IMG/VR virus record: IMGVR_UViG_3300038441_000779
Coordinates: 1-64,000 of that record
Source: a virus
Length of the DNA stretch: 64,000 nt
Reading direction: 5' to 3' (one strand)
Shown here: piece by piece, positions 5,868 to 50,308 of the stretch
Numbering within the stretch: position 1 is the stretch's first letter
Layout: the number at the start of each line of letters is the position of its first letter
Program-made: the position numbers and the translations under genes
The notes under the pieces: model-generated
Databases searched by the model: none
Told to the model about the DNA's origin: nothing
Seen by the model: only the letters and a program-made list of their open reading frames with translations

Positions 5868-8807
5868 ATGGTTGATTTTGTAGAAACTCCCAACTTCGAT
5901 GAGGCCATTGCCATCATCGAGACGGGTGAAAAAGTTCTGGGTGGCGCTGGCGGTCCTGCAAACCGTCCGCTGCAAGCCCTGGCTAACCGTACTCGCTACC
6001 TGAAAGATTTCCTGGATGGTATCGTCAGCGGTGGCATTGGTGGCGTTATCCTCATGGGCGTTCTGGAAACCCAGGCCGAACTGGATGCCATCCCTACTGA
6101 AGGTCTGAAGGTCGGCACCGCCTACTTCCTGAACTTCGAGATGCGCGTGTGGAACGGCACCGAGTGGGGTAACTCCGGTTCCCTGCGTGGTGAACGCGGC
6201 CTCAACATCCTGGGTGTCTGGCCTGACGCAGTTCCACTGCCGGACCACACTCAGAACGTCATCGGTGACGCTTACCTGTGGAAGAACGACATTCACGTTC
6301 TCGTGCCTTCGTTCGATCCTGAAGATCCGGAAGCCTCCGACCTGCCTCCTATCTGGGAAGGTCTGGGCATCCGTGGTCCAGACGGTAAGAGCACCTTCGA
6401 CATTTACCGCGAACAACCAGGTAACGCCAACAAGACCCAAGCCCAGTTCCTGGCTGAACAGAAAGGTGAGCAAGGCGACGACGCCTATGAAGCCTGGCTG
6501 AAGATCCCGGTGAACGAAGGCAAGTCTCGTGAACAGTGGGTTGAAGAAACCCGTGGTCTGCAAGGTGAAGTCGGTCCTGCCCGTGGTGCGTTCGTTGTAG
6601 CTGGTTCGAAGGCCAACGCTGGTCAACTCCCTACCCCGGGCGATGAGACCAAAGCCTGGTACGTAGGTATCGATCTGTACGTTTGGGTCGAAGCCGACCA
6701 GAACTACATCATGATCCCTGGTATCGCTGGTAAGTCGGCGTACACCATCTGGCTGGAATCTGATCCAGAGCATGAAGGTCAGACCGAAGCTCAGTTCCTG
6801 GAGTCGCTGAAAGGTGCTAAAGGTAATGACTCTGTCGTACCTGGTCCAAAAGGTGACGACGGTCGTAACCTGCGTATCCTCGGTACCGTTGGTACCAGTT
6901 CCGAACTGGCCCAGCTCGAAGACCCAGTAGACCAGGATGCCTATGCCACCCTGGACACTGGTCGCCTGTGGATGTTCCTGCCTCTGGAAGGTGGCTGGAA
7001 AGATCTCGGCCCATGGCGTGGTGTGGATGGTAAGTCTGCCTTTGAAGTATGGCAAGACAACGGCCATCCAGAAGGTACCCCAGCTGAGTTCTTTGCTTCG
7101 CTGAAAGGTAAAGACGGTATCAACATGGAGATCCGTGGCGTTGTTGCCACTCTCGCCGCGTTGCCAGCCGTTCCGCAAGAGCAATGGCTGTATGCCGTTC
7201 AGGATGAGCGTTCGTTCTACCTGTACCTCGATGGTGCTTGGGCGAACATCGGTACCTACGGTATCGACGGTGTTGACGGTAAAGACGGTAAGTCTCTCGA
7301 TATCGTCAAGATCCTCACCGAAGAAGACGACGTTCCGCCTGCCGCTGATGCCAACACCAAGGGCAAAGCGTATATCTCCTGGAACCCACGTGATGTCTAC
7401 GTGAACGTTTCCGGCGGTGCATGGGAGAATGCCGGTCCGTTCATGCCTCTGGGTCAACAAGGTATCCAGGGTGTTGCCTTCCGTCCTAAGGGTACCGTCA
7501 TGGCCCTGGGCGACCTGCCTCCTATTGGCGGCGATGGTAACGCGGTAGAAGGTGATACCTACTCGGTTATCGAAGAAGGCAAGAAGCTCTACACCGTTGT
7601 TGACGGTCAGTGGAGCGGTCCTCTGGACATCGTCGGCCCTATGGGTAAAGACGGTCCTCAGGGTATCCCTGGTGCGTTGATGCCTATTAAAGGTGTCTAC
7701 AAGACCATGGCTCTGCTGCGTGCGGCTCACCCTACTGGTGCGCTGGGCGACGCATACATGATCATCGATCCGGATGCCTTGCCAGAACCTATCCGTAACC
7801 TGGCCATCTGGTCGGTTGAGGGTAACGACTGGGTTGACACCGGTCCGTCGGGTATCAAAGGTGAGCAAGGTAATCCTGGTAACGACTCCACCGTACCAGG
7901 TCCTCAGGGTGAGAAAGGTAGCCAATGGCTGACCCTCGCTACCCAAGATGCTCCTTCTGCTGCGTTCAACGGTCGTCCTGGTGACTGGGCGGTTAACCAA
8001 CTGCTGCGCGTCTACTACAAAACTGTTAACCAAGGCTGGGTGTACTGGGGCCAACTGGTCGCGGGTGATGTTAACTCGCCTCTGCTCGCCGAAGGTAAAG
8101 TGGTACGTCTGGGTAATACCTGGATCCCACTGCCTGTAGACGAAGTAGAGAGCCCAGTTGAAGGTGAGTTCTACGCTCGTAAGAAAGTTGGCGAAGATCA
8201 AGGCAACCCAGTGATGGCTTGGGCCGCGCTGCCTGACATCATCGCTGACCTGCAAACCAAACACGACACCAAGCAATTCGTCCGGGTCTACAAGACCACT
8301 GACTCGGTGCCTGTGTGGGCTGAACTGCAGCTGCCTGCGGCTGGTATCTCCGATATCGCCAACCCGAAAGACGGTGCTCTGTACCTGCGCTTCGCCAAGA
8401 ACGGTACCTGGGTCGAATACATCCCGGCTCCGAACGACGCCAAGCAATACGTACAGAAGGGAGGTAACTGGATTTCCTTCGACCGTTATGACATGCCTGT
8501 TAAAGCCATGTCCGCTACCGGTTCCGTGGATCCGACTGTCGACCAGGTTGTAGCGCTGGATAACTCCGCCGTTGCTGCCAAGACCATTACCCTCGGTGAC
8601 GGTCCTAAAGGTGCGAACGCTCGGGCTCAAACCCTGATCGTAACGGTTACTGGTTCTGCTGGCGTTGTTAGCTTCGCAGCTACTGGTGCAACCACCCTGA
8701 GCTGGCACGGTGGTACTCCGCCTACTCTGTCGGGTTCCGTTACCAACATCGTGTTCTGGTGGACCGGTAGCCGTTGGATCGGTCAGCTGGGTGCGGTAGT
8801 CCCTTAA
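5868..8807 (+). CDS. Long tail fibre protein with collagen-like segments (979 aa)
   Basis: Residues 1-60 (FDEAIAIIETGEKVLGGAGG, then NRPLQALANRTRYLKD) resemble the attachment domain seen in many Pseudomonas phage fibres. The body alternates short Gly-X-Y runs (GPKGDDG, GIDGVDGKDGKS, GPMGKDGPQGIPG) with a repeated unit of about 50-60 residues of the form ..I.GV..T...L......GDAY.....LY...DG.W...GP. The last 100 residues are Thr/Gly/Ser-rich beta. AGAGGAAAG precedes the ATG. This is the expected trimeric fibre for host recognition; the next gene is its likely assembly factor. Confidence 0.9.
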   Translation: MVDFVETPNFDEAIAIIETGEKVLGGAGGPANRPLQALANRTRYLKDFLDGIVSGGIGGVILMGVLETQAELDAIPTEGLKVGTAYFLNFEMRVWNGTEWGNSGSLRGERGLNILGVWPDAVPLPDHTQNVIGDAYLWKNDIHVLVPSFDPEDPEASDLPPIWEGLGIRGPDGKSTFDIYREQPGNANKTQAQFLAEQKGEQGDDAYEAWLKIPVNEGKSREQWVEETRGLQGEVGPARGAFVVAGSKANAGQLPTPGDETKAWYVGIDLYVWVEADQNYIMIPGIAGKSAYTIWLESDPEHEGQTEAQFLESLKGAKGNDSVVPGPKGDDGRNLRILGTVGTSSELAQLEDPVDQDAYATLDTGRLWMFLPLEGGWKDLGPWRGVDGKSAFEVWQDNGHPEGTPAEFFASLKGKDGINMEIRGVVATLAALPAVPQEQWLYAVQDERSFYLYLDGAWANIGTYGIDGVDGKDGKSLDIVKILTEEDDVPPAADANTKGKAYISWNPRDVYVNVSGGAWENAGPFMPLGQQGIQGVAFRPKGTVMALGDLPPIGGDGNAVEGDTYSVIEEGKKLYTVVDGQWSGPLDIVGPMGKDGPQGIPGALMPIKGVYKTMALLRAAHPTGALGDAYMIIDPDALPEPIRNLAIWSVEGNDWVDTGPSGIKGEQGNPGNDSTVPGPQGEKGSQWLTLATQDAPSAAFNGRPGDWAVNQLLRVYYKTVNQGWVYWGQLVAGDVNSPLLAEGKVVRLGNTWIPLPVDEVESPVEGEFYARKKVGEDQGNPVMAWAALPDIIADLQTKHDTKQFVRVYKTTDSVPVWAELQLPAAGISDIANPKDGALYLRFAKNGTWVEYIPAPNDAKQYVQKGGNWISFDRYDMPVKAMSATGSVDPTVDQVVALDNSAVAAKTITLGDGPKGANARAQTLIVTVTGSAGVVSFAATGATTLSWHGGTPPTLSGSVTNIVFWWTGSRWIGQLGAVVP

Positions 8808-37195: not shown

Positions 37196-37480
37196 TTACT
37201 TGTTGAAACGGGCTTTCAGTTCTTCCAGCTTACGCAGTTTGGTCTTGCCCGCCTTGCGCGCTTTCCACACAGCAGTACCATGTACACGGCAGTACCAATC
37301 AATCCACTTGGGGTTCAGACCGAAGGTGGTATCACCGCGAAGCTCTGGTTCTGGATCAGGCCCGAGTTTAGCTTCCAGTTTAGGCGGTGTACGATTAATA
37401 GCGTCGTAGATAGCCTGATCCATACCTGGCATGATCCCGTCGAAGTCGGCGTTCAGGGATTTCAATTTATCATTAGTCAC
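37196..37480 (-). CDS. W-x-x-W-Y module protein (94 aa), GTG start
   Basis: GTG at 37480 has CGGAG at 6 nt and overlaps the upstream stop by 8 nt. The C-terminal half carries the module found in nine small proteins of this phage: PEPELRGDTTFGLNPKWIDW followed by YC, a helix and ARKAGKTKLRKLEELKARF. The N-terminal half is a short acidic helix. First of four such genes in 37196-38905. Function unknown. Confidence 0.75.
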   Translation of the reverse strand: MTNDKLKSLNADFDGIMPGMDQAIYDAINRTPPKLEAKLGPDPEPELRGDTTFGLNPKWIDWYCRVHGTAVWKARKAGKTKLRKLEELKARFNK

Positions 37481-37871
37481 GGGGATACTCCGGATACATT
37501 GAGAGACGTTCGGTATGTTTCCTGTAGAGGCGAGGACGTACCTTAACCAATCTAGAGAAAACATCCTTGGTGGTAAAGAAGTAATCTTCGATCACGTTGA
37601 AACCGAGGATACGCAAGCCTTCATCGACCGTAAACAACGGGGCTTTCATGTAGCAGCGATCGCCGTCAAAATCGATCATTGCATAACCACGGTTCAATGC
37701 AATCTTGCGTGGCACACCGGTTTGACGCATGTGCCATTCGACCCAGTCGTTGGACAAGAGATTATCCGGACCAGCGGTGAGTTTGGGCTCTGGGTCAGTA
37801 GCCAGTTTAATACGTGTCAACACATTGGTCGCATTATGACCAAGAGTACTGGTTAGAGCTTTATGTTTCAT
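37473..37871 (-). CDS. W-x-x-W-H module protein (132 aa)
   Basis: Residues about 26-66 hold the module: PEPKLTAGPDNLLSNDWVEW then H and a helix ending ALNRGYAMI. The remaining 65 residues (RILGFNVIEDYFFTTKDVF and a basic Arg/Tyr tail) are a different domain. ATG overlaps the upstream stop as ATGA. Function unknown. Confidence 0.8.
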   Translation of the reverse strand: MKHKALTSTLGHNATNVLTRIKLATDPEPKLTAGPDNLLSNDWVEWHMRQTGVPRKIALNRGYAMIDFDGDRCYMKAPLFTVDEGLRILGFNVIEDYFFTTKDVFSRLVKVRPRLYRKHTERLSMYPEYPRD

Positions 37872-38593: not shown

Positions 38594-38905
38594 TTACCAC
38601 CATGCCTTGAGATCGTTAACTACTTTGCCTTCTTGTAAAGCTTGGATACGGATACGGGCAGTAGCCTTAGCCACATTAGAAGACACCTTTTTCTGCAACC
38701 TGTACCAAGCGATCCATACCGGGTTTGCTTTACCTTCAGCGTTGGTCAAACTAGGTTCGTTCATGCACTGAACGACTTCATTAAAAACCTTATGCGCTCG
38801 CAGGTAGCTAACCCCGTGTTGTTGCATATACCACTTGGTCCAGGGTGCAACATTTAAAACACCCTTACTGGTAATAAGGGATGGCTCTTTGTCATTCGTT
38901 ATCAT
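38594..38905 (-). CDS. Protein with two W-x-x-W-Y modules (103 aa)
   Basis: Two copies follow each other: KEPSLITSKGVLNVAPWTKW and YM.. (1-45), then NEPSLTNAEGKANPVWIAWY and a helix (46-95). The duplicated design shows that about 45 residues make an independent unit. The ATG overlaps the stop of the upstream gene by 14 nt. Function unknown. Confidence 0.8.
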   Translation of the reverse strand: MITNDKEPSLITSKGVLNVAPWTKWYMQQHGVSYLRAHKVFNEVVQCMNEPSLTNAEGKANPVWIAWYRLQKKVSSNVAKATARIRIQALQEGKVVNDLKAWW

Positions 38906-43244: not shown

Positions 43245-43922
43245 TTACATCACTTGTAGTCCATTGAGATTCAACAGAGTAAACTTACCACGACCAGGTT
43301 TCCACCCTTCAGTGTCGATGTAATAAGTGTTACCCAACTTCAACATATCCGTTACCGGGTTATGTCCCACTACCAAGGCGCGAACACCTGTAATCCTGGT
43401 AGTGTCTTTCTCTTCGAACCGTGCACGGCTGTACATGCACTTGTTCATTACCTTCTTGTGTTCCTTACGACGGCTATCGTCACGCAGACGCGCTACAAGC
43501 TCATCCCAGCTGTCGTAAGCACAACCGGCATGCACAATACCAACTAACCCGTATTTGGTCTCTACCTCGATTGCAATGGGCAGAGCATCAAAAGGAACAG
43601 AGAACAACTCCTGCTCTTGTGGGGTGAACGCTTTAAACCAACTACCGGCGTTTTCTAACCAACTGGGCGAGGTCAGATAACGAGAAACATGGTCGTCATG
43701 ATTACCCTTTACCGAGAACACCCAGTCTTTGTTTAACCAATTAAAAGCTTCACGGTTCTCCGGCCCACGATCAACCAGATCTCCTACAATGAACAAACGA
43801 TCAATCAGTGGGTTGAACTTAATCCGGTCCAATTCCACCTGTAGGTAACTGAAGTGCCCATGCACATCACCTACAGCGATATCTCGCCCCTCGGTGTTTA
43901 CTCCAAATCGCTTAACATACAT
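43245..43922 (-). CDS. Metallophosphatase, Ser/Thr protein phosphatase-like (225 aa)
   Basis: All motifs of the calcineurin-like family are present in order: GDVHGH (18-23), GDLVDRG (47-53), GNHDDH (73-78), a His in VGIVHAG and GHNP near residue 195. Length and layout match phage lambda PP and bacterial PrpA/PrpB enzymes, which use two metal ions to dephosphorylate phosphoproteins. AAAGGAA precedes the ATG. It probably acts on host or phage phosphoproteins in the cytoplasm; nucleotide substrates are the main alternative. Confidence 0.9.
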   Translation of the reverse strand: MYVKRFGVNTEGRDIAVGDVHGHFSYLQVELDRIKFNPLIDRLFIVGDLVDRGPENREAFNWLNKDWVFSVKGNHDDHVSRYLTSPSWLENAGSWFKAFTPQEQELFSVPFDALPIAIEVETKYGLVGIVHAGCAYDSWDELVARLRDDSRRKEHKKVMNKCMYSRARFEEKDTTRITGVRALVVGHNPVTDMLKLGNTYYIDTEGWKPGRGKFTLLNLNGLQVM

Positions 43923-44471: not shown

Positions 44472-44493
44472 AATAGTTCTCCTTTAAGTAAAA

Positions 44494-44521
44494 CTATCTA
44501 GCGGTGTTACCCGCTAGATAG
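44494..44521 (-). terminator. Terminator of the membrane-protein operon
   Basis: Perfect 11-bp stem (CTATCTAGCGG and complement), 6-nt loop, followed on the minus strand by TTTTACTT. It lies 12 nt after the LemA-like gene and so ends the unit running leftward from about 48561. Confidence 0.85.
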
Positions 44522-44533
44522 CCACACTGCTTA

Positions 44534-45091
44534 CTACTTGATAGTAGCTTCGCGCTTGCCGGTAGCAAAGGCGTTCTGGGTTGCTTCGTCAGACACGATC
44601 CGGCACATGGTCAGTACGTCTTTCTTCGGGAAGCCTGCCATCTTCAACAGCCAGCCACGAACCAGGTAGTCACGGGTGGTTTCGTACTGGGTACACAGTT
44701 CGATCTTGCGGTCCTGGGAAATCTTGAATTCAGAACCACCGCCGTCGATGATGTCATGGACTTTCAGGAACAGCTTCGAATCCACAGTGGGGTTCTGTTC
44801 CTGGATCCATTGCATCGTAGCCTGACTACCATTCTTGCCGTAACGACCTTCCACCGCAGCCTGCACCACTTCCTTGAGGGAGTTGGTGTACTGCTTGTTC
44901 AGACCCACAGCATCCTGGATCTTGATGGTGGTGGTGCTCAACACGTTTTCACTTTTGGTGTTGAGTGCCTTGATGTCGTTTTCGAAGGTGATCGCGGTGT
45001 CGTGCATGCTCTGGTAGCCCAGGAACAATGCACCAGCCACACCGCCGATGATCAGAAACAGCACGCCAACAACAATACCAGCTACTTTCAT
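44534..45091 (-). CDS. LemA-like membrane protein (185 aa)
   Basis: A single N-terminal span (VAGIVVGVLFLIIGGVAGALF, about 3-23) is followed by a helical bundle as in LemA proteins: FENDIKALNTKSENVLST (in place of the usual helix after the span), a second long helix with an EGRYG turn, then YETTRDYLVRGWLLKMAGFP, close to LemA's R-x-Y-N...F-P end. LemA proteins are membrane-anchored; their biochemical role is not established. It is the last gene of the membrane unit and next to a TPM-like membrane protein, as LemA often is in bacteria. Confidence 0.65.
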   Translation of the reverse strand: MKVAGIVVGVLFLIIGGVAGALFLGYQSMHDTAITFENDIKALNTKSENVLSTTTIKIQDAVGLNKQYTNSLKEVVQAAVEGRYGKNGSQATMQWIQEQNPTVDSKLFLKVHDIIDGGGSEFKISQDRKIELCTQYETTRDYLVRGWLLKMAGFPKKDVLTMCRIVSDEATQNAFATGKREATIK

Positions 45092-45109
45092 TTTCTTGCT
45101 TTCCTTGAG

Positions 45110-46201
45110 TTATGCAACGTCTTCTTTAATTACATACACCGCGATACCGATGGCGGAAGCCAGGTTCAGCAATACCATGGTAACAATTACCCAGGTGGGC
45201 GGTATCCACCCGTTCTTCATGTATTCGAACTTCTTGTTCGAGACACGTTTGAAGTCTTCTTTGATCAGATGGTACTGTTCTTGCACCAACTGGTCAGTGA
45301 ACTTACGTTCGTAGGTCATACTCTGGAGTTGCTTGAGCATGATCTGGTTATCTTGCCCGTCAGCAAACGACATGGCCCGAGCCCACTTAATGTTCTCTTC
45401 ATCGTCGATGCCATAGAACAAGATTACGTCATTCTTACGAGCACCACTCCAATACTCCATGAGAGCATAGAAATAGTCGTCAGGGTTCTGCGTTACTACC
45501 AGGATGACGTTAAGTTGCTTGGTAGGGCCATCATGACTGAGTTGCGCATTCAGCCAGATGTTGATACCATCGTAATCCGTATTAACCCCAGGATCCTGGA
45601 CAACACGGTTGAAACGATAGTAGTCGTACGGTTTTGGATATGCGGGCAGTTTACCAACGTAGCGGTTATGCATGGCTGTATCCACTTTGAAGCGGTTACG
45701 GTCCAGTAGCATGAAGTTAGTAACCATCCCAACCTGTGCAACCGGGTCGGCTACCTCCACCACGCTGTAACGCTCTGGCATCTTCAAGCCGCGACGATCC
45801 GCACGATCAATGGTGTACGTCCCCAAAGTCGTGTAAACGTCCCAGTCGACGTCGTAGGAGTGCTCATCGCAGTACTTGGGCCGACATACCGTACGGGAGC
45901 GCCGCTTACCCTTGGAATCCGTGTAACTCTCCGACTTACAGGTCTCCCCGCACTTGTACTGGTGACTACAGGACACGTGTACCGAGTCCTTACCAGTAAC
46001 AAATCCGTTAAAGATGCTGATGTCAGACGTTTGGGAAGAAGCGGCTGCCGCGATAACACCCATACATAGCGCGGTACTAACAATAGCACCCAAGCCCTGC
46101 AAGGCCCATTCTTTCGGAGTGATCTTGTGCGGGAAGAAGAACTTCGCGATCAAAGCCACCAAGAAAGCCGGTATGAAAACTAAAGGGAAATAAAACCCCA
46201 T
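45110..46201 (-). CDS. TPM-like multi-span membrane protein (363 aa)
   Basis: Two N-terminal spans (FPLVFIPAFLVALIAKFFF and GAIVSTALCMGVIAAAA) and one near the C-terminus (VIVTMVLLNLASAIGIAVYV). Between the spans lies a Cys-rich segment (CSHQYKCGETC, then CRPKYCDEH) and a domain with LNVILVVTQNPDDYFYALME, YWSGARKNDVILFYGIDDEE, which resembles TPM/YgcG domains. ATG at 46201 has GGAG at 8 nt and overlaps the upstream stop. TPM-domain proteins are frequent LemA partners; the match here is by pattern only. Confidence 0.65.
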   Translation of the reverse strand: MGFYFPLVFIPAFLVALIAKFFFPHKITPKEWALQGLGAIVSTALCMGVIAAAASSQTSDISIFNGFVTGKDSVHVSCSHQYKCGETCKSESYTDSKGKRRSRTVCRPKYCDEHSYDVDWDVYTTLGTYTIDRADRRGLKMPERYSVVEVADPVAQVGMVTNFMLLDRNRFKVDTAMHNRYVGKLPAYPKPYDYYRFNRVVQDPGVNTDYDGINIWLNAQLSHDGPTKQLNVILVVTQNPDDYFYALMEYWSGARKNDVILFYGIDDEENIKWARAMSFADGQDNQIMLKQLQSMTYERKFTDQLVQEQYHLIKEDFKRVSNKKFEYMKNGWIPPTWVIVTMVLLNLASAIGIAVYVIKEDVA

Positions 46202-46605
46202 CAACTACTCTCCTTATACTCCTTGTAGGCTTTGGCGTTTTCCTTAGCCTTATCTTCTCGACATACGAATGTATCATACACACCGGTGCAATGACGATAG
46301 TTGTAGTCTTTCGCCCAGGCGTCCAGATCACCCATGGTTTTTGCATAACCTAGCGCACACAGTAAAACAAAAGTGCCTAGGAGCAGCCAACCAACGAAGT
46401 TAGTCATTGGCGGGTCTTTCACAATCTTCACTGGCGGACGACGTGGTAGCACTGGCTTGTGCTTAGGGACCAACGGTAGCTTGGCGTGTGTTTCATACTT
46501 CCGTGACGGCGGAGGTGCCGCAGGAGCAGGAGGACGTTTGTAACTATGCCCTGGATACTCCTTGCCTTCCAGATCATCAGGCGGGGGTATGGTGTCACGA
46601 GTCAT
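46201..46605 (-). CDS. C-x8-C small membrane protein, proline-rich form (134 aa)
   Basis: The frame extends upstream, but GAGG before the ATG at 46605 and the stop of the upstream gene fix the start (MTRDTIPPPDD). Residues 1-68 are cytoplasmic and Pro/Lys-rich, 71-88 form a span (FVGWLLLGTFVLLCALGY), and outside follow HCTGVYDTFVC, the C-x8-C motif, and a Lys/Glu-rich helix. One of six paralogues between 46201 and 48037, and the only one with a long Pro-rich cytoplasmic part. Confidence 0.8.
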   Translation of the reverse strand: MTRDTIPPPDDLEGKEYPGHSYKRPPAPAAPPPSRKYETHAKLPLVPKHKPVLPRRPPVKIVKDPPMTNFVGWLLLGTFVLLCALGYAKTMGDLDAWAKDYNYRHCTGVYDTFVCREDKAKENAKAYKEYKESS

Positions 46606-46607
46606 AA

Positions 46608-46817
46608 TCACCTCGGCAAACAAGAAATGAAGAAAACCCACATGCCGATAACAGCAAGGATCAGCAACCAAAACCAAAGGTCATCGTTCAACTCTTTGGG
46701 TTGGTCTGCTTTAGCTGTACCGGGTTTGCGTATGTATACAAATACACCAGTAGAAGGGTCGTCTATGACGACCTCTTCTTTGGCTATGTATTGTCCCTCA
46801 ATTGGTTTTGAGGGCAT
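46608..46817 (-). CDS. Small C-terminally anchored membrane protein (69 aa)
   Basis: The first 45 residues are polar (VIDDPSTGVFVYIRKPG); the end is a span (LWFWLLILAVIGMWVFFI) followed by SCLPR. This is opposite in layout to the C-x8-C paralogues around it and lacks their motif. AAGGA lies before the ATG; it overlaps the upstream gene by 20 nt. Part of the membrane unit; function unknown. Confidence 0.75.
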   Translation of the reverse strand: MPSKPIEGQYIAKEEVVIDDPSTGVFVYIRKPGTAKADQPKELNDDLWFWLLILAVIGMWVFFISCLPR

Positions 46818-47067
46818 TGAGTCCTTCCTCGTACTGTTGTCTGAGTTCCGCTTGTTTCAAGCGTACTTGCAGGCATTCAGGAGTGGCGTATTCTTCCGCA
46901 CAGACAGTACGGTTGTGGGCGTCTTTAAGACGACGAGCATTTTCCCCGTCAACCTTGATGCCGTAGAACACCGCCCCATAAACAAGGACTACGATAAGTG
47001 CGAATATAGCAACGACAAACCAGCACCCAGGTCCGCCCTTAATTAGGATTTCCCCCAGTCGTTTCAT
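46798..47067 (-). CDS. C-x8-C small membrane protein (89 aa)
   Basis: Short basic N-terminus, span at about 16-36 (FVVAIFALIVVLVYGAVFYG), then an outer segment with CAEEYATPEC and a coiled-coil end (QVRLKQAELRQQYEEGLNAL). Fits the family: aromatic residue at the fourth place of the loop and Lys/Glu/Gln-rich helix after it. 4-nt overlap with the upstream paralogue. Confidence 0.8.
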   Translation of the reverse strand: MKRLGEILIKGGPGCWFVVAIFALIVVLVYGAVFYGIKVDGENARRLKDAHNRTVCAEEYATPECLQVRLKQAELRQQYEEGLNALKTN

Positions 47068-47294
47068 TTAAGCAACTCCTTTTGTCGACTTTCCAACAAG
47101 AGTTTCTCGATCTTGTACTGGTGGCAAGGAATGGTGTCGAAGCGACCAACACAATTGGTCTTGTTATCTTCACGGATCTCGCCACGACGCATCTCAACCC
47201 ACTTCTCTATTAGCAGTACGGAAGGCACGCCTATCACAACAATAATAGCAATGCGGCTCAAATACCACCACCACCACGTATTACGTCCTCTCAT
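47064..47294 (-). CDS. C-x8-C small membrane protein (76 aa)
   Basis: N-terminus with five Trp/Arg residues (MRGRNTWWWWYLSR), span at about 12-30 (LSRIAIIVVIGVPSVLLI), a charged stalk, then CVGRFDTIPC and a helix ending LESRQKELLK. 4-nt overlaps with both neighbours show strict coupling within the array. Confidence 0.8.
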   Translation of the reverse strand: MRGRNTWWWWYLSRIAIIVVIGVPSVLLIEKWVEMRRGEIREDNKTNCVGRFDTIPCHQYKIEKLLLESRQKELLK

Positions 47295-47524
47295 TTATTT
47301 ACTTCCTTCAGCTTGCGCTGGTACTCTTCTTCGATAACCGATTTCTGAAGCTTCTTAGTGTGGCAGGCAGGGAGATCCCACTCAGCCTCACAGTTCTTCT
47401 TCTGCAAGTCTTCATTGGCCTCGTAGAAACCATAGGAAAAGCAAGTAACACACAGCAAGAACATTCCAACTAACGAAAATACAAACCGGCCGCTGGTGCC
47501 GTCTTCGTCATCATAACAACTCAT
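47291..47524 (-). CDS. C-x8-C small membrane protein (77 aa)
   Basis: Acidic N-terminus (MSCYDDEDGTSG), span at about 13-32 (FVFSLVGMFLLCVTCFSYGF), then CEAEWDLPAC and a helix ending YQRKLKEVNK, almost the same as YEQKLQELNK of the next upstream paralogue. 4-nt overlaps with neighbours. Confidence 0.8.
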   Translation of the reverse strand: MSCYDDEDGTSGRFVFSLVGMFLLCVTCFSYGFYEANEDLQKKNCEAEWDLPACHTKKLQKSVIEEEYQRKLKEVNK

Positions 47525-47757
47525 TTATTTAGTTCCTGGAGTTTTTGTTCGTAGGCTTCTTTAGCCTGTACTTTCTTTATGCGCTTTTCCAAACAGTCGA
47601 CGGTTTCATATTCGACAGTACACAGATCCGCACGTTCACGCCGATCATATTCGGTAGACGCTTTGCCAATACCAATCAAGACAAGAATAATCACCGCCAC
47701 CGTACTGAGGAGTTTTAATCCGTCCATAAAGGTGAAGCGGGTATCATTTCGACTCAT
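47521..47757 (-). CDS. C-x8-C small membrane protein (78 aa)
   Basis: Cytoplasmic N-terminus of 13 residues, span at about 14-31 (LLSTVAVIILVLIGIGKA), a charged stalk (STEYDRRERAD), then CTVEYETVDC and a coiled coil ending YEQKLQELNK. The best-balanced representative of the family. Overlaps the upstream gene by 14 nt. Confidence 0.8.
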   Translation of the reverse strand: MSRNDTRFTFMDGLKLLSTVAVIILVLIGIGKASTEYDRRERADLCTVEYETVDCLEKRIKKVQAKEAYEQKLQELNK

Positions 47758-48037
47758 TGCTCTCTCCCGCTTTAAGGGTTTCTTCGAGCGCCTTAGTCAG
47801 ACAAAGAGGATTGTTCATCAGTAACTTACACTCCGATTTAGTGGGTGTGTTACGAATAACCTCTTGCTGCCGTTTGGCGTCTGCCAGGAACGCTTCGGTG
47901 GTCTTTTTGTAGTCAGCACTGAGGGCCGCCAGCTGTACCAAGAAAGAAATACAGATAGTAGGAATGGCTGCCATGCAAAACAAGAACAACCAATCCCAAC
48001 GGTTAAGGCTACGTACTTTCTTTACGATCTGCTTCAA
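47744..48037 (-). CDS. C-x8-C small membrane protein, diverged (97 aa), TTG start
   Basis: TTG at 48037 follows GGGAG by 9 nt and overlaps the upstream stop; no better start exists. A basic N-terminus, span at about 16-35 (LFLFCMAAIPTICISFLVQL), a longer helical stalk, then CKLLMNNPLC and a Glu/Lys end. The loop lacks the aromatic residue of the other members, so this is the most diverged copy. Confidence 0.7.
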   Translation of the reverse strand: MKQIVKKVRSLNRWDWLFLFCMAAIPTICISFLVQLAALSADYKKTTEAFLADAKRQQEVIRNTPTKSECKLLMNNPLCLTKALEETLKAGESNESK

Positions 48038-48561
48038 TCGCCACAGCTCCCACCACCACTGTCGCCACCACTGCTGCCGCTATCGCCGCTATCACTACCA
48101 CGGCCGTAGTCTGTCGGTGTATCGATAACGCAAGCGCTACGCTCAGGGCGACGGTAGCTGTCGTCATCACCGCTGGACAGCACAGTATGTGCTACTGCCA
48201 GGTGCATGAGCGTATTGTCTGGTTCATGGTAACGTGGACCGGGCTGTTGGCCAGGATAATTCACACGACGCATTGGAGGAGGTGGTGGTGGTTGGCGATT
48301 CTGGCCAGTTAACGGATGTACTGGCGGAATAGAGCGCGTATAACCGGCAGGGGCTTCATGCATGCCGTAACCAGGATTAACGCTAGATTTCCAGGTTGGG
48401 GTCTCGGGGCTTTCCATTGGCTCTTCCCCATGGTTTCTACGTAGGGCTTCAATGAACTCCTTATCCCCTGGCTTTACCTTGATACGGCTACGGAACATCA
48501 CGAAACCAACACACGCGCCACCCAGGCCAATTACACCCAGTACAATCGATCCCAAATCCAT
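48034..48561 (-). CDS. Membrane protein with Pro-rich region and Gly/Ser/Cys tail (175 aa)
   Basis: One N-terminal span (LGSIVLGVIGLGGACVGFVMF, about 3-23), a basic segment, a Pro-rich middle (NRQPPPPPPMRR) and a low-complexity end rich in Gly, Ser and Asp with a Cys (GSSGGDSGGGSCGD). Such Gly/Ser tails are common in the TPM/DUF2207 proteins that accompany LemA in bacteria. It leads the membrane unit, behind a hairpin at 48586-48615. Function unknown. Confidence 0.8.
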   Translation of the reverse strand: MDLGSIVLGVIGLGGACVGFVMFRSRIKVKPGDKEFIEALRRNHGEEPMESPETPTWKSSVNPGYGMHEAPAGYTRSIPPVHPLTGQNRQPPPPPPMRRVNYPGQQPGPRYHEPDNTLMHLAVAHTVLSSGDDDSYRRPERSACVIDTPTDYGRGSDSGDSGSSGGDSGGGSCGD

Positions 48562-48585
48562 AAATAATCTCCCGTGGTTAAAGTA

Positions 48586-48615
48586 CCTACCGGAGTCCCG
48601 AAGGACCCCGATAGG
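48586..48615 (-). terminator. UUCG-loop hairpin before the membrane unit
   Basis: Imperfect 13-bp stem closed by a TTCG loop on the minus strand (CCTATCGGGGTCC and partner), between 48625-48951 and 48034-48561. A short TTT follows. It may be a partial terminator or mRNA-stabilising element. Confidence 0.55.
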
Positions 48616-48624
48616 ATTTCTAAA

Positions 48625-48951
48625 TTATTGTTTAGACAGTAACGAAATACGGCGCTTACCTTCCGCAAATGCTTCCGGGCCAGTACGCCCGGTTTGAGCT
48701 TTATACCAATCCATCCAACTAGCCGAAGGAGAGAAAGGATCAAAGGTGCTAAGCATGACAGGCTCTGGGGTAGGAGGCATGTTATCTGGGTGATTATTCC
48801 CGGACTTACCTTGCTGCCAATTGAGAGTACTGGTATTGGCATCTACCAGATACAACTCCTTCTCATAACCGTCCACAGTTACCTTGTAGATGATCTTCCC
48901 CTCGTGGTTGCGCCCCACTTGGTCTACCCGCGCGTTCTTTTCCAGGTTCAT
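48625..48951 (-). CDS. W-x-x-W-Y module protein (108 aa)
   Basis: The first half is a beta domain (RNHEGKIIYKVTVDGYEKEL); the second half is the module: PEPVMLSTFDPFSPSASWMD then WYKAQTGRTGPEAFAEGKRR. The Ala-x-x-x-Gly step at the end of the helix is well kept. GGAG before the ATG. Function unknown. Confidence 0.8.
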   Translation of the reverse strand: MNLEKNARVDQVGRNHEGKIIYKVTVDGYEKELYLVDANTSTLNWQQGKSGNNHPDNMPPTPEPVMLSTFDPFSPSASWMDWYKAQTGRTGPEAFAEGKRRISLLSKQ

Positions 48952-49517: not shown

Positions 49518-49895
49518 TTACATTCCTCGTTTAAGAGCCAAACTGTAAGCATACGCTTCTTCTGGGGACATCTTGTCTTCACGGGCCATGTGCATCACCC
49601 AAAGCAAAGAGATATGTCCATCAGAAGTAAGCATGGTATCTGGAACAGGGATGATGTTGTCAGGAATGGTAAGAACCAAATCAGCAACAATCTTCCGTTT
49701 TATAGTTTCCCCGTAGTCCCTTACCATACGGTCACCTACGTTCTTCGCTTGTCCAAAACGAGGAATTTGTTTTACTCTACCTAACAAGTGAGGCTTCCAA
49801 TACTCAATCCAGACGTCGTTCACTTCATCTGGATTGGTGGTAAATACCGAAGGTTCGTTGTCCTTCGGTAAGTACAAAACTATTCCGTCGTCCAT
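49518..49895 (-). CDS. Protein with two degenerate W-x-x-W-Y modules (125 aa)
   Basis: First copy: NEPSVFTTNPDEVNDVWIEY then W; second copy: LTSDGHISLLWVMHMAREDK followed by SPEEAYAYSLALKRG. A basic linker with RMVRDYGETIKRK lies between. The ATG overlaps the stop of the next gene upstream by 1 nt. Function unknown. Confidence 0.75.
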   Translation of the reverse strand: MDDGIVLYLPKDNEPSVFTTNPDEVNDVWIEYWKPHLLGRVKQIPRFGQAKNVGDRMVRDYGETIKRKIVADLVLTIPDNIIPVPDTMLTSDGHISLLWVMHMAREDKMSPEEAYAYSLALKRGM

Positions 49896-50308
49896 TACTC
49901 TTCCTTGGTCTCTGGGCCAACCTGAACAAGCTTATTACAATCCAGCTCACCCCAGACGCCAGCGTGATAAGCCGACCCATAACCCACGTTGTGGGTATAG
50001 CGGTACCAAATGATCCACTCCAAACGCGATACTTGTTTGGGACCATTGCCGACAGATGCCTCAATAAATTTAATCGGCTCGATGCTCGGATCCATGTAAC
50101 GGAGAGGTTCTTCTTCGAGGAGCTTGATAACTTCCTCACCACGTTGATAAGCCTGCATGAGGTTCGTACGTGGGTTGTTACGAATATACCAGGCAAGCCA
50201 ATGCACACTAACAGGGCGGCGATGGTTACCAGTGAAGATGCAAGGCTCGTCCAATGCTGGCTGGTAAGTGACGTTGGTGTTATTAACGTCCAGAGCTTTG
50301 TCGTTCAT
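49895..50308 (-). CDS. Protein with two W-x-x-W-Y modules (137 aa)
   Basis: First copy: DEPCIFTGNHRRPVSVHWLA then WY, a helix and AYQRGEEVIKLLEE. Second copy: IEPIKFIEASVGNGPKQVSR then LEWIIWYRYTHN and AYHAGVWGEL. Full-length duplicates in one protein support the unit length of about 45-60 residues. Function unknown. Confidence 0.8.
   Translation of the reverse strand: MNDKALDVNNTNVTYQPALDEPCIFTGNHRRPVSVHWLAWYIRNNPRTNLMQAYQRGEEVIKLLEEEPLRYMDPSIEPIKFIEASVGNGPKQVSRLEWIIWYRYTHNVGYGSAYHAGVWGELDCNKLVQVGPETKEE

What the first reader, a model, noticed from the sequence alone, without database searches (positions are those of the whole stretch)
44534..48561. Phage-encoded membrane module: LemA-like and TPM-like proteins with six paralogous C-x8-C microproteins
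Seen: six genes (46201-46605, 46798-47067, 47064-47294, 47291-47524, 47521-47757, 47744-48037) encode one membrane span followed by an outer segment with two Cys exactly 8 residues apart (CTGVYDTFVC, CAEEYATPEC, CVGRFDTIPC, CEAEWDLPAC, CTVEYETVDC, CKLLMNNPLC) and a Lys/Glu/Gln-rich helix. Five have an aromatic residue at the fourth loop position. They overlap by a few nt and are followed by a TPM-like and a LemA-like gene, then a strong terminator. Known: LemA and TPM/YgcG proteins are often encoded together in bacteria, role unclear. Inference: one hetero-oligomeric envelope complex, perhaps for superinfection exclusion, envelope remodelling or lysis timing.
Basis: partly seen in the sequence, partly recalled or inferred. 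Interest (0 to 1): 0.88.

Follow-up and report, generated by a model that had tools for sequence, protein, structure and literature searches.

The report
Jumbo-phage disulfide-loop membrane microprotein array
A giant bacterial virus carries a row of tiny membrane proteins that share a previously undescribed cysteine-closed loop, placed in front of a two-gene membrane cassette (TPM-like plus LemA-like) found in hundreds of other phages and in bacteria; both are real, but they are separable modules and neither has a tested function.

Summary
A minus-strand gene block (48561 to 44534), bounded by two stable hairpins, encodes small single-pass membrane proteins, then a TPM-like and a LemA-like protein. 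Five of the six C-x8-C proteins are true paralogues: a model built only from a related phage finds them (E 2.5e-14 to 5e-5). The sixth (47744-48037) shares spacing only.

The microprotein family was found in just three EL-like jumbo-phage records and in no family library. The TPM-LemA pair is different. It is a conserved two-gene cassette (phrog_2087 then phrog_1383), detected in about 470 phage records and adjacent in all 42 loci inspected where both genes were present, 12 of them bacterial. It lies below Pfam cut-offs. LemA homology is supported by profiles and fold, TPM mainly by fold.

Inside the EL-like group all four combinations occur: both modules, microproteins only, TPM-LemA only, neither. 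This argues against one obligate hetero-oligomer.

Best reading: two membrane modules in one transcription unit. TPM-LemA is probably an inner-membrane assembly or stress factor. The microproteins are probably locus-specific envelope ligands with a shared disulfide-closed docking loop. Mechanism is inferred, not shown.

The parts
48586..48615 (-). Terminator-like hairpin before the first gene of the block
   Evidence: RNA fold of 48562-48622(-): -24.5 kcal/mol, z -3.3; hairpins at the matching place in L008 (4358-4425) and L044 (4583-4674)
48034..48561 (-). Membrane protein: N-terminal span, Pro-rich linker, Ser/Gly/Asp-rich tail ending SGGGSCGD
   Evidence: ORF; 37% identical counterpart in L008 4423-4983; absent from the L044 locus, where the first gene after the hairpin is a microprotein
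47744..48037 (-). Small membrane protein with CKLLMNNPLC; same layout but not demonstrably homologous to the other five
   Evidence: ORF; not found by L008-only, leave-one-out or 15-member models
47521..47757 (-). Microprotein paralogue, loop CTVEYETVDC
   Evidence: L008-only HMM E 1.8e-5; G000 hit
47291..47524 (-). Microprotein paralogue, loop CEAEWDLPAC
   Evidence: L008-only HMM E 5.3e-5
47064..47294 (-). Microprotein paralogue, loop CVGRFDTIPC; orthologues in L008 5622-5861 and L044 4896-5153
   Evidence: L008-only HMM E 4.2e-12; tree and best partners
46798..47067 (-). Microprotein paralogue, loop CAEEYATPEC
   Evidence: L008-only HMM E 3.4e-7
46608..46817 (-). 69-aa protein with a C-terminal membrane span; similarly placed and built genes in L008 and L044
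   Evidence: PIEGQYIA / PIEGEYLA in window and L008; 32% and 19% identity
46201..46605 (-). Microprotein paralogue with Pro-rich N-terminal extension, loop CTGVYDTFVC; orthologues in L008 (ends 6895) and L044 5749-6174
   Evidence: L008-only HMM E 2.5e-14; 50% identity to L008
45110..46201 (-). TPM-like membrane protein (phrog_2087): N-terminal span(s), Cys-rich segment, TPM-like domain, C-terminal span
   Evidence: phrog_2087 E 4.4e-117; fold top matches 3ptj/3pvh AtTLP18.3 prob 0.97; ATG start as in L008
44534..45091 (-). LemA-like membrane protein (phrog_1383): N-terminal span plus helical domain
   Evidence: phrog_1383 E 2.1e-59; hhalign to authentic LemA 95.5%; fold top match 2ETD prob 0.98
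44494..44521 (-). Terminator-like hairpin with U-rich tail after the LemA-like gene
   Evidence: RNA fold of 44475-44535(-): -25.4 kcal/mol, z -5.2; hairpin at the matching place in L008 8568-8640

Best explanation
Two membrane modules share one hairpin-bounded transcription unit of an EL-like jumbo phage. Module 1 (46.2-47.8 kb): five paralogous single-pass microproteins. Most likely the N-terminus is cytoplasmic and the C-terminal 40-50 residues are periplasmic. Two invariant cysteines close a disulfide loop, C-x-(G)-x-[YFW]-[DNRE]-T-x-x-C, followed by a charged helix. The fixed loop on variable spans and tails suggests that every paralogue docks on the same kind of partner through the loop. 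I infer that they bind and alter host inner-membrane or periplasmic proteins, for example to change the envelope or hinder competing phages, and that duplication diversified their targets. Module 2: TPM-like plus LemA-like, a two-protein inner-membrane unit that travels as a pair through phages and bacteria. By analogy with bacterial TPM-PspA-SPFH systems it probably helps assemble or stabilise membrane protein complexes under envelope stress during infection. Shown: genes, paralogy of five, cassette conservation, LemA homology, separability. Inferred: topology, disulfide, targets, functions.
For: Paralogy without circularity. Invariant Cys pair and near-invariant Thr in 15 proteins from three genomes. 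Orthologue groups at matching positions, so duplication predates the split (support modest, short sequences). Hairpins at matching places bound the unit. TPM immediately upstream of LemA in 30 of 30 phage loci and in 12 of 12 bacterial loci that hold both genes; about 470 phage records carry each gene. LemA. TPM. All four module combinations in the EL-like group. Classical LemA and TPM genes lie side by side in Variovorax. Published: TPM domains associate with PspA and band-7 (SPFH) genes and are proposed to aid assembly of membrane-linked complexes (PMC11237479). An SPFH-like gene lies just after LemA in contig L009.
Against: No function, localisation or disulfide has been measured. Charge bias around the spans is not uniform (47291 is +1/-4 on the N side), so orientation is uncertain. 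TPM profile-profile comparison is not significant (probability 0.2%) and PF04536 is matched weakly by one of 13. The TPM model has mean pLDDT 68. No SPFH gene was found in the window's record or its EL-like relatives, which weakens the analogy. Only three microprotein genomes are known.
Confidence: 0.4

Rival explanations
1. One hetero-oligomeric envelope complex: the microproteins are subunits or adaptors of the TPM-LemA complex.
For: Same transcription unit and order in the window and L008; microproteins overlap by 4 nt and run into TPM; a shared loop could dock on TPM or LemA; the TPM-like protein itself has a Cys-rich segment.
Against: L044 keeps five microproteins without TPM or LemA; TPM-LemA occurs in hundreds of phages and in bacteria without them.
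Confidence: 0.2
2. Lysis-related proteins (spanin-like or antiholin-like): small single-span periplasmic proteins that time or complete lysis.
For: Layout resembles inner-membrane spanins; two of 15 members match the Rz-like spanin profile phrog_1152, best E 0.005.
Against: Matches are weak and probably driven by the hydrophobic span (a stronger hit, phrog_7885, rings in 11 of 14 control genomes). No lysis gene was identified next to the block, no outer-membrane spanin partner is evident, and five paralogues would be unusual.
Confidence: 0.12
3. Superinfection exclusion proteins: the array blocks DNA entry of other phages at the inner membrane.
For: Small membrane proteins with a periplasmic part are a common design for exclusion proteins (established knowledge); lineage-restricted, fast-diverging array.
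Against: No similarity to any known exclusion family by Pfam or PHROGs; no direct evidence.
Confidence: 0.2
4. Virion components: the LemA-like protein and neighbours are structural, as the label of phrog_1383 says.
For: phrog_1383 and several GenBank records are labelled 'virion structural protein'.
Against: In CsCl-purified Sajous1 virions neither gp96 (LemA) nor gp97 (TPM) was listed (PMC10892097 Table 6). RAY gp46 is not in that phage's mass-spectrometry table (PMC6690015).
Confidence: 0.06

Closest known systems
LemA family (PF04011; solved structure 2ETD, Thermotoga TM0961)
   Same: N-terminal span, elongated helical domain, profile-profile similarity 95.5%, best PDB match by sequence profile and by fold; gene next to a TPM gene
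   Different: Below the Pfam cut-off in all members tested; gene order TPM-LemA rather than LemA-TPM-TPM seen in Variovorax; forms its own phage/bacterial group
TPM domain proteins (PF04536; AtTLP18.3 3PTJ/3PVH, Corynebacterium cg2496 2KPT, B. subtilis YdjH)
   Same: Fold matches; membrane-anchored
   Different: Below Pfam cut-off, profile comparison not significant; has an added Cys-rich CSH.Y.CGE.C...C segment and a C-terminal span
PHROG phrog_2087 and phrog_1383
   Same: Direct members (E 4e-117, 2e-59)
   Different: Families have no tested function; the 'virion structural' label of phrog_1383 is not borne out by two published proteomes
Rz-like inner-membrane spanins (phrog_1152)
   Same: Single N-terminal span plus short charged helix
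   Different: No o-spanin partner or lysis context found; disulfide loop; five paralogues; weak score

Membership tests
LemA family (PF04011) | Match above curated Pfam cut-off | tested here: not met
   No hit for the window protein; 2 of 13 phage members at best E 0.0014; bacterial members 13.6-16.8 bits against 26.2
LemA family (PF04011) | Homology to authentic LemA by profile comparison | tested here: met
   hhalign 95.5%, E 1.5e-8 over 134 columns; controls 0.1-0.2%; 2ETD best PDB profile hit, E 0.01
LemA family (PF04011) | LemA fold | tested here: met
   Model pLDDT 74.5; 2ETD ranked first, probability 0.98, but E 0.14 and TM-score 0.35-0.44
TPM domain (PF04536) | Match above curated Pfam cut-off | tested here: not met
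   1 of 13 at E 0.005; one bacterial member 13.2 bits against 22.1
TPM domain (PF04536) | Homology by profile comparison | tested here: not met
   hhalign 0.2%, although the aligned stretch lies in the domain expected to be TPM
TPM domain (PF04536) | TPM fold | tested here: inconclusive
   Top two matches AtTLP18.3, prob 0.97, E 0.015, TMt 0.49; 2KPT ranked 9; model mean pLDDT 68
phrog_2087 - phrog_1383 cassette | Both genes present, adjacent, TPM upstream | tested here: met
Rz-like spanin | Clear profile match and paired outer-membrane spanin near an endolysin | tested here: not met
   Best E 0.005 in 2 of 15; no endolysin or spanin partner among the neighbouring genes examined
Superinfection exclusion proteins | Protection of the expressing cell from phage | not testable with these tools
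   needs an experiment

The most novel reading that the evidence does not exclude
A new phage membrane machine: a set of disulfide-loop microproteins that assemble on one another through the shared loop into a hetero-oligomer in the inner membrane, whose assembly is assisted by the phage TPM-LemA pair when present, and which remodels the host envelope during jumbo-phage infection.
Probability: 0.12. Interest if true: 0.75.

Novelty: new variant of a known kind. Interest (0 to 1): 0.5.

Why it matters
LemA and TPM proteins are widespread in bacteria with poorly defined roles. Finding that hundreds of phages carry a matched TPM-LemA pair, adjacent wherever it was inspected and below the detection limit of standard libraries, gives a compact, genetically tractable setting in which to learn what the pair does. 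The microprotein array is a new family with a defined, testable feature (a disulfide-closed aromatic-acidic-Thr loop). Its natural separation from TPM-LemA in related phages offers ready-made controls.

Tried and rejected
Single-protein scans of viral contigs with two microproteins and tblastn against 50,697 phage records: no relatives. The phrog_7885 hit to 46798 (E 4e-4) was dropped because the model rings in most control genomes, so it is probably a hydrophobic-span match. The best PDB profile hits of the microproteins are transporters, read as span matches. The 'virion structural' label of the LemA family was checked against two published proteomes and not supported. An EL-type phage promoter motif was not enriched in the window. 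A bacterial-genome scan with a microprotein group found nothing. SPFH was tested as a constant partner and is not: 8 of 20 records, none EL-like. Literature searches found no paper on LemA or TPM in phages.
Full report
What is there. The window belongs to a 184,196-base virus record. Its tail fibre, GroEL-like chaperonin and another protein point to an EL-like jumbo phage: best matches include Pseudomonas phage EL at 35-37% identity. On the minus strand, 48561 to 44534, lie ten genes with Shine-Dalgarno-like sequences and mostly overlapping ends. In order they are: a membrane protein with a Ser/Gly/Asp-rich tail, six small C-x8-C membrane proteins with one further small membrane gene (46608-46817) between the last two, then a TPM-like and a LemA-like gene. 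A stable hairpin lies before the first gene and another after the last; both recur at the matching places in the related phage L008, and the first recurs in L044.

Are the microproteins a real family? An HMM built only from the five proteins of L008 was run over all 629 window ORFs of 30 aa or more. It found 46201 (E 2.5e-14), 47064 (4.2e-12), 46798 (3.4e-7), 47521 (1.8e-5) and 47291 (5.3e-5), with the next ORF at 0.72. The reverse search with the window set found all five in L008. The sixth protein, 47744-48037, was found by neither this model, a leave-one-out model, nor the 15-member profile. It shares layout and spacing but homology is not shown. Across 15 members from three genomes only the two cysteines are invariant and the loop Thr is nearly so. 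The consensus is C-x-(G)-x-[YFW]-[DNRE]-T-x-x-C. Spans and tails vary.

Where else? tblastn against the phage collection found no relatives. Viral-contig scans with four alignments of orthologous groups returned only two contigs besides the window: L008 (236 kb) and L044 (229 kb). One bacterial-genome scan found none. These scans rely on short patterns and may miss distant members. Orthologue groups {46201, L008 6392, L044 5749} and {47064, L008 5622, L044 4896} occupy matching positions, so the array predates the split of these phages (branch support is modest because the sequences are short).

The TPM-LemA pair. The two proteins are clear members of phrog_2087 and phrog_1383. tblastn finds 473 and 470 phage records, with nearly the same host breakdown. 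They include Ackermannviridae, Demerecviridae, Agricanvirus, Straboviridae (Aeh1) and ICP1 phages. In all 30 phage loci examined TPM lies directly upstream of LemA. A bacterial-genome scan with the LemA alignment returned 13 loci; 12 held a TPM gene directly upstream and the thirteenth is a 3-kb contig that begins at the LemA gene. Some bacterial loci sit beside what look like ordinary chromosomal genes. So this is a conserved two-gene cassette shared by phages and bacteria, which standard libraries do not name.

Are they really LemA and TPM? LemA: profile-profile comparison with three authentic bacterial LemA proteins gave 95.5%, E 1.5e-8, against 0.1-0.2% for the crossed controls. The best PDB sequence-profile hit and the best fold hit are both 2ETD, the Thermotoga LemA protein, though the fold hit has E 0.14. 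TPM: profile comparison with classical TPM proteins was not significant, but the two best fold matches are AtTLP18.3, with cg2496 (2KPT) lower in the list. I call it TPM-like, resting mainly on fold. In Variovorax classical LemA and TPM genes also lie side by side, in the other order.

Do the two modules form one machine? Within the EL-like group every combination occurs. The window and L008 have both. L044 has five microproteins and, at the syntenic site and in the whole record, no TPM or LemA (the same TPM profile rings in the other records). L002 and L003 have TPM-LemA and no microproteins. EL has no microproteins and no TPM. Records may be incomplete, but L044's locus is contiguous. The Ser/Gly/Asp-rich gene is present where TPM-LemA is present with the array (window, L008) and missing from the L044 locus. 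An obligate complex of all parts is therefore unlikely; a facultative association is not excluded.

Mechanism. Published comparative genomics finds TPM domains next to PspA and band-7 (SPFH) genes and proposes a chaperone-like role in assembling membrane-linked complexes (PMC11237479). B. subtilis YdjG/H, the latter a TPM protein by that account, help bring PspA and the SPFH protein YdjI to the membrane (PMC8581546). One phage contig (L009) has an SPFH-like gene right after LemA, but SPFH is not a constant partner. I therefore propose, as inference, that TPM-LemA is an inner-membrane assembly or stress factor used during infection. For the microproteins, an invariant cysteine pair, a fixed aromatic-acidic-Thr loop and variable remainder suggest disulfide-closed periplasmic docking loops that share a partner type. 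Whether that partner is a host envelope protein, the other microproteins, or TPM-LemA is undecided; I give most weight to a host target. The label 'virion structural' is not borne out: neither protein is listed in purified Sajous1 virions (PMC10892097), nor RAY gp46 in that phage's table (PMC6690015).

Verdict. The finding is real and partly new: a new microprotein family of narrow distribution and an apparently unrecognised, widespread TPM-LemA cassette. The single-complex interpretation is weakened. Function is open, and the decisive tests are experimental.

Noticed in passing
window 37196-37564, 37473-37871, 38594-38905, 48625-48951, 49518-49895, 49895-50308 (all -): A second multiplied small domain of about 40 residues with a W-x-x-W-Y core, up to two copies per gene; also 2-8 copies in L002, L003, L008, L044 and EL. 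The three window proteins tested have no PHROG match.
   Followed up: partly
L009 just after the LemA gene; also records of L007, L010, L011, L017, L021, L052: SPFH (band-7) genes in several TPM-LemA phages, adjacent to LemA in L009.
   Followed up: partly
L007 (Aeh1) 6821-7849: Three small genes after LemA, each with an N-terminal span and two cysteines about 22-31 residues apart: an analogous set not recognised by the microprotein profile.
   Followed up: no
window 43245-43922 (-): NinI-like Ser/Thr phosphatase (phrog_246), best matches about 52-54% in smaller Pseudomonas phages; syntenic in L044, so a useful anchor.
   Followed up: partly
L065-L075, L077: Bacterial and candidate-phyla genomes carry the same divergent TPM-LemA pair, some beside ordinary metabolic genes.
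   Followed up: partly
L044 11228-11662, L002 8850-9311, L003 12089-12562, EL ORF136: Conserved secreted-looking protein family with paired cysteines (C..YTDN..D....TDNP) in EL-like phages.
   Followed up: no
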